Below, in pieces: positions 23,919 through 53,235 of a stretch of 64,000 nt of DNA. Source of the DNA: Terfezia claveryi (lineage: Eukaryota; Ascomycota; Pezizomycetes; Pezizales; Pezizaceae); contig WHUX01000051.1 of assembly GCA_015179025.1 (NCBI GenBank), forward strand, positions 1-64,000. Direction: 5' to 3'. The notes beneath the pieces were generated by a model. That model did no database searches. It was not told the origin of the DNA and was given only the letters and a program-made list of their open reading frames with translations. The position numbers and the translations under genes are program-made. The number at the start of each line of letters is the position of its first letter. Position 1 is the first letter of the stretch.

Positions 23919-25264
23919 ATGGCGACAAATTCCATCAAGCTCCTGACTGGTAATAGTCATCCGGAGTTGGCAAGATTGGTTGCGGAAAGGTATGTCGCCT
24001 AAAACAATGAACCGAACACATTGCTGAGATTAGGATACACAAAAACTGTGGGTGACAAGCTAACTGGTGCATCGTAGATTGGGAATTGAGCTGACGAAAA
24101 TCCTGGTTCTTCAATACTCCAATCAAGAGACTTCCATCACCATTGGAGAGAGTGTTCGTGACGAAGATGGTAATCAGGAGGCCTGCCGCACGCTTGTAGT
24201 TTCAGAGATGCTGATATTCGCCTATAGTTTTCATTTTACAATCGACTGCTCCTGGCGAGATCAACGATGGACTTATGGAGCTTCTCATCATGATCAATGC
24301 CTGCAAGACTGCCTCTGCTAGGCGTATCACTGCTGTCATTCCGAACTTCCCTTACGCCCGGCAGGACAAGAAGGACAAGAGCCGTGCTCCCATCTCGGCC
24401 AAATTAATAGCCAACATGTTGCAAGTCGCTGGGTGCAACCATGTTATCACAATGGATCTCCATGCGAGTCAGATTCAAGGGTTCTTCAATGTTCCAGTTG
24501 ACAAGTAAGTCGCCGCGGGCTGCTTTGGATAATGGAGAAACTAACGCTGGCGCAGCGTGAGGACATTACCACTCCGCTATTCATCAAGGGCTATGCATAC
24601 TAATCTGGGCCCACTATTAGCTGTATGCTGAGCCCTCCATGCTGCGATACATCCGCGAGAACTTTGACTGGAAGAATGCCGTCATCGTCTCACCTGATGC
24701 TGGTGGAGCAAAGCGGTATGTACCCCAGCCCCACATGCCCCACTACCCCACCATACTTGCTGACGCTCGGACCCTTGTTAGTGCGACTGCCATTGCCGAC
24801 CGCCTTGATCTGTACTTCGCTCTGATCCACAAAGAACGATCGAGGCCCAATGAGGTATCGCGCATGGTTCTCGTTGGCGATGTGAAAGACAAAATTGCCA
24901 TCCTCGTTGACGATATGGCAGATACTTGTGGTACACTTGCCAAGGCAGCTGATACTCTTAAGGCCCATGGTGCCAAAGAGGTTGTCGCTATCGTCACTCA
25001 CGGGATTTTGAGTGGGAAAGCCATTGAGGCTATCAATGGCAGTCAGTTGAGCAGGGTTGTGGTTACCAACACTGTCCCTCACGCAGAGAAGAAGGCTAGG
25101 TGCCCCAAGCTTCACACCATCGATATTGCGCCCACGGTAAGGAGAACGCTCTGTTTACACTGGTCATGTGAATGCTAATGTATGTGAACCAGCTGGCCGA
25201 GGCTTGTCGAAGAACTCACAACGGCGAGAGTGTATCATTCCTTTTTAGCCATGCTCCCACTTAA
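23919..25264 (+). CDS. PRS: Ribose-phosphate pyrophosphokinase (PRPP synthetase)
   Basis: Makes 5-phosphoribosyl-1-diphosphate from ribose-5-phosphate and ATP, for nucleotide, His and Trp synthesis. Seven exons: 23919-23989, 24078-24169, 24228-24504, 24556 (one base), 24621-24715, 24782-25136, 25193-25264; 963 nt, 320 residues, the family's usual size. Visible motifs: ATP-loop [11 protein letters not shown] (97-107), [11 protein letters not shown] (131-141), [12 protein letters not shown] (150-161), PRPP-binding loop [10 protein letters not shown] (221-230), and C-terminal [11 protein letters not shown]. Fungi have several Prs paralogues; I cannot say which this is. The oddity is the single-nucleotide exon completing the Asn147 codon: without it the frame is lost at a junction where both sides match the family perfectly. 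Confidence 0.93.
24556..24556 (+). other. Predicted one-nucleotide exon (C) in PRS
   Basis: Upstream intron 24505-24555 runs GTAAGT ... CTAAC ... GCGCAG (51 nt); downstream intron 24557-24620 runs GTGAGG ... TACTAAT ... TTAG (64 nt). Joined, GACAA + C + CTGTATGCT reads Asp-Asn-Leu-Tyr-Ala, as in PRPP synthetases generally. Skipping the C as one 116-nt intron shifts the frame. Confidence 0.8.
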
Positions 25265-25687: not shown

Positions 25688-26986
25688 TCATTGCCCCTTC
25701 TTCTGCTCAGCGGCAGCTTCCTGGTCCTTGAACCACTATCAACCACCATGAGTCAGCGCCTAGCCTAAAGCCACTTCCGGGAATGGGGGAAAAAAACCCA
25801 CCTTGACTGACTTTTCCAGTCCATTATGTAAAGAATACAGAGGCTTATATCCCAACAGCATCTTCGCCTTTCTAATATTAAAATACCTCTGACTCGTTGC
25901 ATAATTGACCCTGAACCTAGTGAACCCCGGCTCCTTCTTCACCAACCACGCATACCACTCCGCCGCCCACGCCAACGCATAACCAAGGTCTTTCCCAAGC
26001 TTGATATGATACGGCGCAACGTGGCCTCCGTACATGGCCCAGATTGCCCTGGGGAAGTCCCAGAAGTAGACGGGCTCGCCGTTGGTGATGAAAAAGACTT
26101 GGCCGGCTACATTTTGCGAGGGGTTTTGGGACGGTGAGGAGAGTTGGTGGATCATGCGCTCCGCGGCGAGGATGTGTGCATAGGCCGCGTTTTCGATGTA
26201 TGTGAAGTCGAAGAGGTTGTCATTTGTGCCGAGCTGGAATTTGGTTTGGTTATTTTTGAGGACGGAGAGCATCCCAGGGACCATTTGGCGGTCGCCGGGA
26301 CTGTCGGGGAAGGGGTAGGAGGTTAGCCTGGAGAGCGGGAGGAATTGAACAGTGATATGGGACTTGCCCAAAGAGACCGGCCACCCGGAGAGAGCAGGTG
26401 TTTACTCCGCCCTTGCCATTGAATGCTGTGACAAACTCCTCTCCTTTGGCCTGTTGTCACGTTAGCCACCTATTCCCATGCTAGCCATAGCTCTTCCCGC
26501 ACATCAATTAGGGATATATACCTTGGAATCACTGTACGAGTCCGGATTGCTCGGATTAATCGGATATGTCTCATCCACATTAATCAAATCATTAACATTA
26601 TCAGTCACCACCCCCGCCGAGCTCGTATACACAAACACGGGTATCTTCTCCTCCGCCGCAACCTCCAACAGCGTCTTCGTCCCCTCGACATTAACCTTAT
26701 AGTAAATCTCCTTTGCCATAGCGCTAGACGTCGCCGCCAGCGGGCTGACAGTATTAATCACCACCTGCGCCTTACTGCCGCGATACGCTGCCCGAACATC
26801 CTCTGGCTTGGTGATATCCCCATTGAAGTACTGCACATTCGGGGCTCGATTGTGGTTGGTATGTAAATCGAGGACGGAGATGGAGGCCTCTGGGTGCTGC
26901 TGGAGAAGGAGGTTGACAATGTGATGGCCAAGGAAGCCACATCCCCCGATAACAATCACATGTGGGAGGGCGGTTCTGGACGTCAT
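25688..26986 (-). CDS. ERG26: Sterol-4-alpha-carboxylate 3-dehydrogenase (Erg26-like)
   Basis: NAD(P)-dependent short-chain dehydrogenase of the 3-beta-HSD family; Erg26 acts with Erg25 and Erg27 in C4-demethylation of sterols at the ER. Exons (minus): 26986-26522, 26450-26368, 26300-25802, 25735-25688; 364 residues, as expected. The Rossmann start reads VIGGCGFLGHHIV (~12-24), the catalytic YxxxK is YSDSK (151-155), and LFGPGDRQMVPGML and YIENAAYAHILAAERM are typical 3-beta-HSD segments. The last exon supplies WFKDQEAAAEQ. The second intron starts with GC (GCAAGT...GACAG), a GC-AG intron, with a GCTAAC branch point. Other 3-beta-HSD family members are possible but the match along the length favours Erg26. 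Convergent with PRS. Confidence 0.85.
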
Positions 26987-38244: not shown

Positions 38245-40126
38245 ATGTCGAAAGCACGCCCCCCCCACACCAGCTTGCAGATAGAAACACAAGCCTCTGC
38301 CGCCTCGCTCAGAGCTACTGTGGGCATTCCCCCTCCTTCACCTACAGTATCCGATGGCAGCAGTGCAGGAAATATTCGAGTCGTCGTTCGAGTCCGGGGT
38401 ATAAACGCTCGCGGTTCGTCCTCCCTTTCCCCCCTGCCTTCTCACCCCATTAACAATCCCCCCCATAGAAGCCGAGCGAGGGGCGAATTGTCTAGTCGAG
38501 ATAGATCCTCATACGCAAACCACGCATCTCTACCCTCCCACTGAAGGCGACAAATCTCACACACGCAAAATCTTCGACAAGAAATCCTTCACCTTCGACA
38601 ACTCCTTCTGGTCCGGTTCCCCAACTGACCCACACTATGCCACCCAAGAACACATCTACGACTCCCTCGGGGAGGAATTCCTCGACCATAATTTCGCGGG
38701 ATACCACACTTGCATCTTCGCATATGGGCAGACGGGGTCCGGCAAATCATACACCATGATGGGCGTGGAGGGGAACCCTGGCCTCATCCCCCGTACCTGC
38801 GAAGACCTTTTTGAAAGAATCGAAGTCTATCGATCCCCAGACGTGAGCTATTCCGTGAGAGTATCCTACTTTGAGATCTACAACGAGCAAGTCCGGGACT
38901 TACTCGCTCCCCGCACGGAAACTCCGCGGTACCTTAAGGTCCGAGAATCCCCCACCGAGGGGCCCTACGTCACGGATCTCATAGAGCTCCCAGTCAAGAA
39001 CTATGCTGAAGTAAAGCGCTTCATCGAGCTCGGCGACCAGAGCCGGACTACTGCCAGCACGAAAATGAACGATACCTCGTCCCGCTCCCATGCGGTGTTT
39101 ACGCTCATGCTCAGACAAGTGCACCACGACGTCAACAGCGACGAAACAACCGAGCGAGTCGGCCGCATGCGCCTCGTCGACCTTGCCGGCAGCGAACGCG
39201 CAAACGCAACTGGCGCAACTGGCGCACGTCTCCGCGAGGGTGGGAATATAAACAAGTCCCTCACCACCCTAGGCCGAGTCATTGCCACTCTGGCCAGCTC
39301 CTCTACTAGCACCAACATTTCCCGCTCAAAGAAGGAAGTCGTGCCATACAGAGACTCAATCCTAACTTGGCTCCTCAAGGACTCCCTGGGAGGAAACTCC
39401 AAAACTGCAATGATCGCCTGCATTAGTCCAACGGATTACGATGAGACTCTCTCAACTCTCCGCTATGCAGACCAGGCGAAACATATCAAAACTAGGGCTA
39501 CAGTCAACGAGGACCAAGTCTCTTCTGCGATTCGTGACGCTCAGGTCGATGCTTTGCAGGAGACGATCAGATCTCTACAATTGAAAATGGCTCAAGAATC
39601 AGACGCCAGACAGAGTAAAGAACATGAGATCCAAAATAGGCAGTTGGCGGAATACCAGAACCAGGTTAGCCAGATGCAACGCCTTATGGAAGAGCAGCAG
39701 CAGGTAGCTGAAGTCAAAATCAAGTCCTTGCAAACTCAAAACGAGACATTAAGACTACACTTGAAACTCGCTGTGGAAGGGCGGAGATTCTCCTCAAACC
39801 CAGTCGGCATGGGATCTGAGGTTGGCGGGGGTTTGAGTAGGAATAACTCAACACTAAGCCGAAATAGTTCCTTGAGGAGAGCTGGGAGTGTAAAGAGGAA
39901 CTTGGGCGGTGCTAGTGCTGGGGGCCAGCTACAGCAGAGTTTGCAGATGGAAGATGAAGGCCTCGGGGCAGAGAGTGAGTTTGGGAGTGAAGATGAATGG
40001 GATGATTTCATTACTGAGATTGAGATCAGGTGTGATGATGTGCTAAAGAGAGTTGGGTCATTTAAGAGGAAGGCTGCAGAAGATAAGGCTAGGTTTATGT
40101 TAAACTCGTTACATGAGAGGTCGTGA
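38245..40126 (+). CDS. Short kinesin-3 family motor (fungal Kin3/UncB-like)
   Basis: Exons 38245-38413 and 38469-40126 (55-nt intron) encode 608 residues. Motor domain: IRVVVRVRGINARE (N-terminal strand), P-loop GQTGSGKS (143-150), switch I NDTSSRSH (257-264), switch II LVDLAGSE (292-299), and the LTTLGRVIATLA and YRDSILTWLLKDSLGGNSKT segments typical of kinesin-3. Loop 12 region lacks the long Lys stretch of KIF1A. A neck and coiled coil follow (about 415-497), then a Ser/Asn-rich linker and acidic tail. It has no FHA or PH domain, as in the short fungal kinesin-3 group; these move membrane cargo along microtubules. Full kinesin-3 proteins (UncA type) are over 1500 residues. Confidence 0.88.
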
Positions 40127-47050: not shown

Positions 47051-50000
47051 CTACTCCTCCATTCCATCCCCCTCTCCTGCCTCCCCACCCGGCGCCTCAT
47101 CGCCCCCCTCCACACCCAACTCATCCAACGCCACATTTGGATGCAAATTATAGACCACCCTCTCCTGTGCCCTCGCACTTCCCTCCCCTACCCCGCCATC
47201 CCCATCCGCGTCTTCACCAACTAACCCCTCGCCTCTAATCTGCATCAGAATACTATCCCTGACCATCCTCCTCAGGACCTTCCCGACCAGCGACCCCTCC
47301 CTCTCCAGCTCCTCCTCAGAGTTGATCTCATCCTCCTTCTGCTCCAAATACCACGTCCTCAGATCCTCCGCCTCCACGCCCTCGCCTGAGGTCATTTCCT
47401 CCTGGTGGATCCGCCGCACGAGGAGGTTGACGATGGACATATACTTGTCATATGTGATTTTAGTCTTCTCGCGGGGGGGTTGCACAGTTGCGCTACGGTC
47501 TCGGTCGAGATCGTCGGCGGCGTCTCCATCACCCATATCATGATCGCCATCACCATCAGCATCGGCAGCAGCACCAGCAGTGACCGACCGACTCCTAGCC
47601 TGGTCAGATATATTTGCGCCGTCCAGGCCTCTGGGGGGTACATCATCGTCCTCATCATCCACCTCTACATCATCCCTCTCGACATGAATAATACTCTGCC
47701 TAAGCAAATTAAACGCCTCCCTCACAAACCCCGGCGCCACATCTTCGACACAATTCGCCTTTGCAATCGCCTCACTCAGTCTTATCAAACTCTCCAACTG
47801 CCTGACCGTAATGCGATAACTATTCCTCCCAATCCCAGCATCGTCATTTCTCAGCTCTTTATACTTCTCCACCAGGAGCAGCTTCGCATCTTCCGTAAAC
47901 ACTGGCTTAAACGTCCTCGCATACCGAATATACCGCTGCAGCTGCTCCGTCGTGAATTCAGGCTGGATACTCTCATCCCTCAGTCTATGGATATTGACAA
48001 TATGTCTCGCGAGATTCCGATCCACGGCTTCATTACACTCGTCGAGGACTACAAAGAATAGATCGAAACGGGACATGATCGGCGCAGACATATTGATATT
48101 CGCTCTCAACGTCGTTTTCCGGTTATACCTTCCCCCTACTGGGTTCGCGGCGGCAAGGATACTTGTTCGAGCATTTAATGTAGCTTGGATGCCCGCTTTC
48201 GCGATTGAGATAGTCTGCTGCTCCATTGCTTCGTGGATAGCGACTTGGTCACCAATATCCATCTTGTCAAACTCGTCGATCGCACAGATCCCATTATCGG
48301 CCAACATGAGCGCTCCAGCTTCAATTGTAAACTCGCCAGTCTCTTCGTCCTTGACGACCGCGGCGGTAAGACCTGCTGCGGAGGAGGCTTTCCCAGACGT
48401 GTACACTGCGCGGGGGAGAAAGGAGCAGATGTATTTGAGGAATTGTGATTTGCTGGTACTGGGGTCCCCGACGATACAGATATTGATGTCACCTCGGAGA
48501 GCCATTCCTTCGTTTGTGCGCTTGTGTACACCGCCCATAAGTTGAAGTAGAAGGCCTTTTTTGATGATTTCATGCCCGTAGACGGTCGGGGCGATACTGT
48601 TGACTAGTCGGGAGTAGATGTGGTCGCTATGTACCATCCTCTTCAAATCCTCAATCTCCATTGGCGTTAAACTCTGCAAAAAGCGGTTCTGTGCCTCCTC
48701 ACCTGTTCCATCGTCTTCGTCATCTTGTGCACCATCTGCCTCGGCGTTGATGATACTTGCAATTGCCGCAGCAGGAGAGTCGTCCGGAGTGACCATGCAT
48801 GCCAGGAACGCCATTCTATAAGTCAAATCCCTCACACCAAGGGCCTTGAGTCCAGAAACACCTGCATTCTCAATCCCCCTCGGAGCATTTTTGTTATCTC
48901 GAATAGCCTCCGGCCTCACACCAGGAAGTCCCAATTGCGATAAATCTGGAACGACGATTAATGCGCCGGTGAAAATACATTTTTCACCGGCCTTTGCTCT
49001 GTCGACGACTTCTCCTCGTAATATAACATCCATTGTCCGCGGCATTGAGCCGGTAGGAATTTCAGATGAATTTTCTTGAATCCGCACTTTCTGCCAGTCA
49101 ACAAAGATCGATTGCCGGACGTCGAGGCGCCAGCCGTTGCGGTTCCCGCAGGTGAGGTTAGGACATTGTGTTGGTTCTGTGTATCGAAAGACTTGTTCCA
49201 CATTGGATATAACCGCCCTACACGCCTCACACGTAAATGTAGCAAGATGCAACTCTGGTCGAACCTCCGAAGTCCTAGTCACGGTTCCAGAGATAGAAAG
49301 AAGCTGTCCAATCGAATTCGTCCTCAAGTTCCTAATCCGCGATACCAACGGAAGGTTATAAAACGCAATTGAAAATAATCTATCCGTCTGGGGGACACCC
49401 GAACCCGATGTATCGACAGACTGCTGTCCCTGCGGGGTCGGGCCAGCGGTATTTTTCTTGTAGTACTCTGGTTCGTATTTTGCGATTTTGCGCTGCAGGC
49501 CACGGGTGAGGAAGGGGAGAACACGATAGTAGTGTTCTACGATTCCCTCAGCGAGGACGCGGTTGTAGGAGTCGATGTGCGAGAAGTCGACGTAAAGGGT
49601 GGATTGTTCGGTAGAGCGGAGCTGGTGGATTCGTGCGATGTAATGTTTTGTGGTGGAGTAGCCGCCGGGGGTGGGAGCGGCAACGTCGTTCTGGTCGGGG
49701 TCTTCCTCGAACCTATGATCTCAATTAGCTACTCCCCTACCTACTACCCACCAGCCACAGTGGAGGTGGGAAGTAGAGGTGGGAATACTTACTCCTCTAG
49801 AAACTTTTCAAAAATCTCCCTTAGCGTCTCACTCGTCTGATCCTGCACCTTCGGAATAGCGTTTAAATCCCCCAGTCTCCTAGGTCGGCCATTGGCTCCT
49901 CTGTTCCCCACAACTTCGTCCTCCGGATCGTCCATGACCTCGTCCTCTTCATCCTGCTCGCTGTGCAGGGTTCCCCGGGGGCGGGAGGAGTCGCGCCGCC

Positions 50001-50634: not shown

Positions 50635-53235
50635 TCACCCTAAAAGCTCCGCAGCCATCTTCTCCAGATCGGCAATATTATCTAAAACATGGTTCGTCTT
50701 CGACGTCTTTAAACTACTCTTCTTCGTCTTCTTTCTCACCTTCTTCTCGACCCTGTCTCCTTCCTCACCCTCTTCCCCATTATCATTATCCCCCCTCGAC
50801 CTCTTTCTACTCTTATTCTTCTTCTCCCTCTCCTCCGTCTCCGGAAGCGGCGAAGAATCATCCTGCCCTTCCTCACCACTTCCCTCCTCACCAAAATTTT
50901 CCCACTCCACCACCGGCAACCCTCCCAACTGCACCCCTCCTCCCCCCTTAAACCTTCCACTTCCACCTCCGCCCTCTCCCTCCTCTCTCTCTCTTTCTTC
51001 TTCTCTTTCTTCTCCCTTTTCTTCTCCCTCGCCACCTCCCTATCCCTGACATCTGCCTCCCCAACCCTAACCTTTTCCTCTTCCACAAACCTCCTCCTCT
51101 GACTCTCCGCGTCCCCTTCCTTCCTAAATTCCTCCATCCCAACAAGCTCATAGACCAGATGCGCGTTCCCCTCATCGTCAAACACCATCTTTGTCGGGCC
51201 AGCTTTGAATTTCGCTAGGGCTTTCTTTGATTTGAGGAGTTTCTCACGGCGGTTGGAGTCGATGATCAAGGGCGTAGCAGCGCCTGGGAGGTATACCATC
51301 GGAGCAGTAACACCTGGGGGGATCAGTGTAGTCTCTGCCGACGGTGATGGCGAGCGGGGAAGAACGCGCTTGACAGAGAGAAATTCGTCGCCATCCTTAT
51401 CTCCAAGGATAGGATCCGCGATAAGTTTGTTATAATGGTCTGCAAGGACAGTCTGATTTTTCCGCTCAAACATCCTGTCGTATTTCGTTCTGACTTCCTG
51501 TTTCTTCTTTCCCTTCTTCTTCCCTTCCTCTCCTTCCTCCTTATCCGCTTCACTTTCAGAGCTCTCCGCCATCTCAACCTCCTTCATCATCCTCCTACTT
51601 TTGTTCTTCAGTTCCTTCACTTCCTGATTCGAAGCCCCCCCGTTCTCCCCCTTCTTCCTAACGACATTTGGCTGCCCCGGCAACCCCAGACTCTGAGCAT
51701 ACTCCTCCAACGGCAACTTATCTAAATCAAATGTCTCCTTATCCTTCTGAATATAAATACTCTTCGTATAACTCACGAACGCCTTTTGCCCCAAATACTT
51801 CAACGTCGGATCCTTAAAACACATCGCCTGCAAATGTTTTTGAATACTCTGCATACTCTTCTGCGAGACCTTATTCTCCATAATTGGAACTTTTTTCGCC
51901 CCAAGCTTCTTTTTAAATCCTTCCACTTCACTAGGGCAAAGGAATAGCACCGCTGAACCATCTTTATTCATCCTCGCCGTTCTCCCTACTCGGTGAATAT
52001 ACGTCGCCGAGTCTTCAGGACAGTCGACCTGAATAACCCAATCCACCGCAGGGAAATCAAGTCCTCGTGCAACAATATCCGTAGCGAATAAACACGTCTT
52101 TGTCGCCTCTGAGAACCGGGTGGTAATCTCTTGCCGCGCAGTCTGCTTCTGTTTTCCGTGTAAATGCAACAACGGGATACCAATATGTAACTTTCGAAAT
52201 GTCTCGTATACGAAGCGGACTTGCTTACAGCTGCTGAGAAAGACTAGGATTTTCTTCGTCAAGTGTGCTCTTAGGAAGGAGTATAGGATGTCGAGTTTCT
52301 GTGGGAGTGGAGTGGTGATGTAAAATTGCTTTAGGGTCGTAGGAGTAGCGGTTGTGGCTTTATCGTGAACACCAACATATTCTGGATCTTTCAGGGAGAG
52401 TCGGGCAAGGTCAGAGAGAGACTGTGTCTGTGTTGCAGAGAAGAGAAGGGTTTGTCGGTCGCGGGGGAGGTATTTTATGATTGCATCAAGAGTCGATTTG
52501 AACCCCATATCGAGACACCTATCCGCCTCATCCAATACCAGAATCTGTAAGTTGTCTGTATCGAAGCCTGCGGCTTCACTCATATGCTGCATAATTCTCC
52601 CCGGTGTACACACGAGGATATTCATCCGCGAGATTCTTTCTTTCTCTTCTTGCACATTCCTTCCCCAATAACAAGTCCAGCAGAAAATGCGTGGTATCTT
52701 CCAATTTGCCTCAAAACCTCGAAAATCTGCGTCGCAAGCTCCCGGGTCGGTGATATTATCAGTGCGCCTAACCCATCCATCTGCGTCCATTTCTTCCTAT
52801 ATAGAACCTCCAGAACTGGAACAAGGAACGCAAGGGTCTTCCCACTACCAGTCTTTGCCGCGCCGAGAATATCCCGGCCCTTCAATGCTAGTGGAAGTGA
52901 TTTCTTCTGAATGGCCGTGAGTGTTGTGAAATGTGAATCCTTAAGCCCGCGAGCGGTTTCCTCGGTAAGGGGAAGTTCGGAGAAGAGGTCTGCTGAGCTG
53001 AGCCCCTATGGGAGTAAACAAGTTAGTTGAGATGGGCCGTTCGAGAGGAAGGCGGCCTTACAAACTCGGATACTCTCTGCTCCAATTCAGCGAGCTTTTT
53101 CTCAAAGGCCTCGCGCTTGACGAGGCGGGATTTGGGCTTCTTCTTATCGGTTTGCTGGTGCTTTTTGTTTTTGCTCTCTGGCCCACGGATGTGGCCTCCA
53201 GCTGCACAAGCAGGAGCGGCGATGCCCCGTGACAT
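50635..53235 (-). CDS. DBP4: Dbp4/Hca4 DEAD-box RNA helicase (18S rRNA processing), two 1-nt frame breaks
   Basis: Exons (minus) 53235-53062 and 53005-50635; 848 residues once two missing bases are allowed. Dbp4 helps release U14 snoRNA from pre-rRNA in the nucleolus. Motifs: Q motif [11 protein letters not shown] (~84-94), Walker [10 protein letters not shown] (107-115), SPTREL, CTPGR, DEAD (217-220), [14 protein letters not shown], then the C-terminal basic/acidic region ending [10 protein letters not shown], typical of Dbp4. The frame changes at a C4 run (52663-52666 on plus strand, exactly in the VIGG motif) and again in a low-complexity stretch near a C6 run (50942-50947). Each is a one-base loss. 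Because Dbp4 is essential in yeast and all motifs survive, assembly error is the likelier cause. Confidence 0.9.

What the first reader, a model, noticed from the sequence alone, without database searches (positions are those of the whole stretch)
24505..24620. One-nucleotide exon in the PRPP synthetase gene
Exon 3 ends GACAA and the next long exon starts CTGTATGCT; both sides are in the exact family register, and the family needs Asn (AAC) followed by Leu-Tyr-Ala. A single base is missing unless the C at 24556 is kept. That C is flanked by two textbook introns: 24505-24555 (GTAAGT, CTAAC, GCGCAG) and 24557-24620 (GTGAGG, TACTAAT, TTAG). The whole CDS then totals 963 nt = 320 residues. A one-base assembly loss would have to fall exactly on a splice junction that has no homopolymer, and would leave the extra internal acceptor and donor unexplained. 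Single-nucleotide exons have been described in a plant; the two-intron layout also resembles fungal stwintrons (nested/sequentially spliced introns).
Basis: partly seen in the sequence, partly recalled or inferred. Interest (0 to 1): 0.92.

Follow-up and report, generated by a model that had tools for sequence, protein, structure and literature searches.

The report
One-base exon in a fungal gene
In a fungus related to desert truffles, the gene for the central metabolic enzyme PRPP synthetase appears to contain an exon of a single letter between two introns, an extreme form of gene splitting known from very few genes, and still to be proven with RNA.

Summary
Exons up to 24504 and from 24621 encode PRPP synthetase in register, but joining them directly frameshifts. 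Keeping C24556, between introns 24505-24555 and 24557-24620, gives a 963-nt CDS (320 aa) and the family motif VDNLYAEP. It is the best of 548 enumerated two-intron solutions against six relatives; the best of 33 canonical single introns loses VDN. The full signal set around the C arose by chance in 14 and 36 of 200,000 simulated introns.

The nearest named relatives are Kalaharituber (97%) and Peziza (95%). Of 239 listed homologs 224 have Asn here, 2 (Kalaharituber, Ascobolus) Lys, and 13 basidiomycete models lack VDN. Lys is what a model ignoring the one-base exon would read here, so those two may hide the same exon; unproven.

It is not a stwintron: no splice element is split. One-base exons are already reported for plant APC11 and VPS55 and Fusarium CYP621A. 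So this is a new member of a known kind, predicted from sequence. No RNA and no DNA of relatives at this locus was available.

The parts
23919..25264 (+). PRPP synthetase gene (prs4 type), seven coding exons, 963 nt CDS including stop
   Evidence: Pfam PF13793 over cut-off at 24227-24433; 97% to Kalaharituber, 95% to Peziza over full length
23919..23989 (+). coding exon 1
24078..24169 (+). coding exon 2
24228..24504 (+). coding exon 3, ends GAC AA
24505..24555 (+). intron A, 51 nt: GTAAGT, CTAAC, CAG
24556..24556 (+). one-nucleotide exon C, third base of the Asn codon AAC
   Evidence: predicted from sequence, no RNA
24557..24620 (+). intron B, 64 nt: GTGAGG, CTAAT, TAG
24621..24715 (+). coding exon after the one-base exon, starts CTG TAT GCT
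24782..25136 (+). coding exon
25193..25264 (+). last coding exon with stop

Best explanation
C24556 is a one-nucleotide exon of the prs4-type PRPP synthetase gene of a Pezizaceae-like fungus. Shown from sequence: two complete introns with normal signals abut this base, and its retention restores the family reading frame and residue. Inferred: the two introns are removed one after the other by intron definition, because two spliceosomes could hardly occupy splice sites one base apart. Intron A, with the stronger donor, probably goes first; this fuses the C to exon 3 and puts it in front of the second donor (AAC|GTGAGG); intron B is then removed. It works like recursive splicing, except that one coding base is kept at the step. 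Skipping the C or retaining an intron truncates the protein, so inclusion should be nearly constitutive.
For: Frame and family: 963-nt CDS, 320 aa. Of 548 two-intron solutions enumerated it ranks first against each of six relatives (P0001, P0002, P0003, P0004, P0009, P0010), and its product equals P0002 over the 67 residues compared (score 351 of 351). The best of 33 canonical single introns loses VDN and scores 23-29 lower. Signals: donor A matches 8 of 9 U1-consensus positions; both introns have CTRAY 11 and 17 nt from the end, against 13-18 nt in the gene's four other introns. Chance of the full signal set: 14 and 36 of 200,000. 224 of 239 listed homologs have Asn here. P0002, an ORF of 320 aa on anonymous contigs of at most 1465 nt, so probably from transcripts, is 97% identical and has Asn. 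Two paralogs in the same genome read GAC AAC and GAT AAC without an intron here.
Against: No RNA evidence. No DNA of a relative at this locus could be seen. The closest named relative and Ascobolus have Lys, not Asn. 13 basidiomycete models lack VDN, so VDN may be dispensable. Donor B is mediocre: 4 U1 matches plus one wobble as transcribed. No statistical splice-site model of this genome could be built.
Confidence: 0.85

Rival explanations
1. Assembly error: a base was lost at the exon 3 junction and one ordinary 116-nt intron (24505-24620) is removed.
For: The two outer splice sites alone make a standard GT-AG intron, and draft assemblies contain small errors. The whole interval (116 nt) is within the range that introns of this genome may reach: 2 of 13 better-resolved introns in CCT genes came out at 121 and 137 nt.
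Against: The error would have to fall at the junction, and the internal acceptor, donor and extra branch point would then be coincidence (14 and 36 of 200,000). The other exons of this gene are in perfect register. The other introns of this gene are 56-88 nt.
Confidence: 0.06
2. One canonical intron, 24497-24620, is used and the enzyme lacks Val-Asp-Asn.
For: It is in frame and canonical, and 13 basidiomycete PRS models read FDVP-LYAEP, lacking exactly VDN.
Against: The donor GTTGAC is poor next to GTAAGT eight bases on. None of the Pezizomycete proteins listed lacks VDN or VDK, and a search made to find such models listed only basidiomycete ones.
Confidence: 0.03
3. A single intron with non-canonical ends (GT-TA or TA-AG) is used, giving Lys as in the Kalaharituber and Ascobolus models.
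For: Its product matches the Kalaharituber protein exactly over the 67 residues compared (350 of 350).
Against: Such ends are not used by U2 introns (recalled), while two normal introns are available. Lys occurs in 2 of 239 listed homologs. The match may instead mean that those models are wrong.
Confidence: 0.04
4. The gene is a frameshifted pseudogene.
For: Two other PRS-type genes exist in the genome.
Against: The remaining exons are intact and the product is 309 of 320 identical to its relatives P0001 and P0002. The two other genes are distant paralogs with large insertions, read by eye. The DNA search found no second copy of this region.
Confidence: 0.02

Closest known systems
One-nucleotide exon of CYP621A P450 genes, Fusarium (PMC12940212)
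   Same: Fungal nuclear gene; one base flanked by AG and GT inside what looks like one long intron; needed for frame and for a conserved motif.
   Different: Other gene, other class of fungi; there a G in a Gly codon, conserved in 20 or more orthologs and supported by SRA reads; here a C in an Asn codon, one genome, no reads.
One-nucleotide exons of plant APC11 and VPS55 (PMC4674806, PMC8831610)
   Same: Same anatomy; missed by annotation; experimentally proven there.
   Different: Longer plant introns (the APC11 base lies 333 nt into a 422-nt interval); here 51 and 64 nt.
Stwintrons (fungal nested introns; PMC5639578, PMC9024468, PMC7138796)
   Same: Two short adjoining U2 introns, probably removed one after the other; similar sizes (for example 53 and 46 nt in A. 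nidulans lipS).
   Different: In a stwintron no base is kept and (sensu stricto) one intron splits a splice element of the other. Here both introns are complete side by side and one coding base is kept.
Recursive splicing at ratchet points (title and abstract of PMC8605326 seen; otherwise recalled)
   Same: The first splicing event brings a downstream donor to the exon end.
   Different: Ratchet points juxtapose acceptor and donor with nothing kept, in long introns; here one base is kept between short introns.

Membership tests
single-nucleotide exon (nuclear, U2 introns) | one base bounded by AG upstream and GT downstream, with complete introns on both sides | tested here: met
single-nucleotide exon (nuclear, U2 introns) | the base is required for reading frame and family sequence | tested here: met
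single-nucleotide exon (nuclear, U2 introns) | the base is present in mature RNA | not testable with these tools
   no reads of this organism; P0002 is only a relative's probable transcript product
single-nucleotide exon (nuclear, U2 introns) | conserved in orthologs | tested here: inconclusive
   only proteins of relatives visible; Lys in Kalaharituber and Ascobolus models is suggestive
stwintron sensu stricto | internal intron interrupts donor, branch element or acceptor of the external intron | tested here: not met
   both introns are contiguous and complete; definition from passages
stwintron sensu lato ([D6,7], [D7,8]) | internal intron lies inside the external one and the whole interval is removed without residue | tested here: not met
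   removing all 116 nt frameshifts; definition from passages
recursive splice site (zero-base exon) | acceptor AG directly abuts donor GT | tested here: not met
   one base lies between them
PRPP synthetase | domain match over the family cut-off and full-length homologs | tested here: met

The most novel reading that the evidence does not exclude
This codon of fungal PRPP synthetase is a hidden microexon hotspot. A one-base exon is shared by several Pezizomycetes and misread as Lys in the Kalaharituber and Ascobolus models; in basidiomycetes an in-frame 9-nt microexon coding VDN is missed, which is why all 13 basidiomycete models recognised among those listed lack exactly VDN. Its downstream intron would then sit at the same Asn|Leu phase-0 position as intron B here. 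If so, many deposited PRS proteins are wrong at the same spot.
Probability: 0.25. Interest if true: 0.72.

Novelty: new member of a known kind. Interest (0 to 1): 0.52.

Why it matters
A one-base exon is the lower limit of what the spliceosome can define. In the papers I saw, three nuclear genes are reported to have one (APC11, VPS55, CYP621A). A further case in a central metabolic gene of another fungal class would show that they arise repeatedly. With introns of 51 and 64 nt it is a compact substrate for testing the order of removal. It also shows how a gene model can hide such an exon behind a plausible but wrong residue.

Tried and rejected
An ab initio intron model from 264 kb of the genome failed: 114 candidates, 54 of them without a recognised branch motif, and none in this gene. 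I did not use it. Junctions in CCT/HSP60 and actin genes (31 junctions, 30 with a candidate) were chosen with a motif score and so are circular for motifs; by a cut-off set afterwards (score at least 4.6, length deviation at most 3 residues) 13 of 31 were kept, 11 of them 46-77 nt and 2 of 121 and 137 nt. The first enumeration of alternatives used the predicted product itself as reference, which is circular; I repeated it with six relatives. Viral contigs gave two PRS loci at 44% identity, not read. The two introns share no more than 5-nt matches. RNA folding of 24495-24630 is unremarkable (z 0.50). ARAGORN found no tRNA in the window. A search built to find models lacking VDN listed 13 basidiomycete ones and no Pezizomycete one; no listed protein was close enough to the 13 to test them (best 65-70%). 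Stwintron and recursive-splice membership were rejected on structure.

Full report
What is there. The gene at 23919-25264 (+) encodes a PRPP synthetase of 320 aa. The nearest named proteins are from Kalaharituber pfeilii (97%) and Peziza echinospora (95%), so the organism is Pezizaceae-like; the species was not identified. The DNA search found one copy of this region. Two further PRS-type genes lie on C2 and C157; neither has an intron at the codon in question.

The observation. Exon 3 ends GTT GAC AA at 24504 and the next long exon starts CTG TAT GCT at 24621. Joined directly they frameshift and stop after 192 codons. With C24556 kept, the CDS is 963 nt and reads [15 protein letters not shown]. 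The C lies between intron A (51 nt; GTAAGT; CTAAC, 11 nt from the end; CAG) and intron B (64 nt; GTGAGG; CTAAT, 17 nt; TAG). The gene's other four introns are 56, 58, 66 and 88 nt, with CTRAY 13-18 nt from the end.

Alternatives. I enumerated single introns with any ends and double introns with GT/GC-AG ends, at least 35 nt each, between about 24420 and 24680, and scored the products against six relatives. There were 1759 stop-free in-frame single introns, 33 of them GT-AG, GC-AG or AT-AC, and 548 double-intron solutions. The one-base exon was the best double solution against all six references, by 23-30 points. Its product equals P0002 over 67 residues. The best canonical single intron, 24497-24620, loses VDN and uses the poor donor GTTGAC. 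The best single intron of any kind needs GT-TA, TA-AG or stranger ends and gives VDKLYAEP; against the four Asn references it scores 6 points lower than the one-base exon, against the two Lys references 5 points higher.

Chance. With the true donor and the last 22 nt fixed, a one-base exon C/T with YAG, CTRAY on both sides and a GTRNG donor arose in 14 of 200,000 dinucleotide shuffles and in 36 of 200,000 genomic inserts; a bare AG-N-GT in 1.4% and 8.4%. The filter was set after seeing the site, from generic consensus elements.

Family evidence, for and against. Three searches listed 239 different proteins, the best 120 of 7992, 2128 and 1038 hits, so the counts are of what was listed. At the critical residue 224 have Asn, 2 have Lys and 13 lack VDN. 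The Lys proteins are Kalaharituber pfeilii and Ascobolus immersus, both genome models. A search with the Lys-bearing stretch as query listed no third one in 120. Ignoring the one-base exon and taking one base of the neighbouring intron gives, in this window, exactly the Kalaharituber sequence over 67 residues (350 of 350). I take this as a hint that those models hide the same exon. A real Asn-to-Lys change at a phase-2 intron would look the same, so it is no proof. P0002, a 320-aa ORF on anonymous contigs of at most 1465 nt and so probably from transcripts, has Asn. Five anonymous ORFs (P0122, P0124, P0125, P0129, P0130) run unbroken through DNLYA and leave the family sequence just after the K-R at which intron 24716-24781 starts here. 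If they come from unspliced genomic DNA, those organisms lack introns A and B but have the next one, and A and B would be lineage-specific.

The basidiomycete gap. The 13 proteins without VDN are models from Cantharellus, Russula, Kwoniella (4), Desarmillaria (2), Armillaria (2), Naematelia and Coprinopsis (2). This weakens the argument that VDN is indispensable. It could also mean a missed in-frame 9-nt microexon at the same place. Nothing in hand decides: no other listed protein is closer to them than about 70%.

Mechanism. Shown: the anatomy and its coding consequence. Inferred: consecutive removal. Donor A matches 8 of 9 positions of the U1 consensus (recalled); donor B matches 4 plus a wobble as transcribed and 5 plus a wobble once intron A is gone. 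So I prefer A then B. Guo and Liu argue for intron definition with stepwise removal for APC11, but cite a potato microexon where the second intron leaves first; the order is open. No unusual folding was found.

Comparison with the known. PMC12940212 (outline and parts 1-2 of 3 read) reports a one-base exon in Fusarium CYP621A with SRA reads, and calls it the first in a fungal gene. PMC8831610 (passages) adds plant VPS55 to APC11. PMC4674806 (parts 1-2 of 3) proves APC11. Stwintrons (passages of PMC5639578, PMC9024468, PMC7138796) keep no base; that test fails here. Searches of the open-licence library for stwintron, one-nucleotide exon wordings, microexon with fungal terms, with PRPP synthetase and with Pezizomycetes listed no report of this exon. 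Only the titles and abstract starts were seen for most; one search listed 10 of 288, 15 of 38 and 10 of 22, and most subscription papers are not held.

Verdict. Very probably a real one-nucleotide exon; a new member of a known kind; unproven without RNA. The wider reading, a microexon hotspot hidden in fungal PRS gene models, can be tested in public data and is the more interesting lead.

Noticed in passing
P0215-P0225, P0230, P0239 (homologs of window 24228-24715): 13 basidiomycete PRS gene models from several orders read QGFFDVP-LYAEP, lacking exactly VDN: a true deletion or an unannotated 9-nt microexon at the site of the one-base exon here.
   Followed up: partly
P0001 and P0009 (homologs of window 24492-24632): Kalaharituber pfeilii and Ascobolus immersus models have Lys where 224 of 239 listed homologs have Asn; the window gives the same Lys if the one-base exon is ignored.
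   Followed up: partly
P0081 and P0043: Two relatives' gene models look wrong elsewhere: Tuber melanosporum lacks [10 protein letters not shown] just upstream, and Maublancomyces gigas has about 19 extra residues after GAKR, where an intron lies here.
   Followed up: no
L002 and L004 (minus strand), contigs C2 and C157 of G000: Two further PRS-type genes with long insertions; both read through the Asn codon without an intron.
   Followed up: partly
25760-26371 (-), 38756-40126 (+), 47051-49348 (-), 50736-52790 (-): Judged by eye from ORF translations only (names recalled): sterol dehydrogenase-like, kinesin-like, MCM-like and DEAD-box helicase-like reading frames.
   Followed up: no
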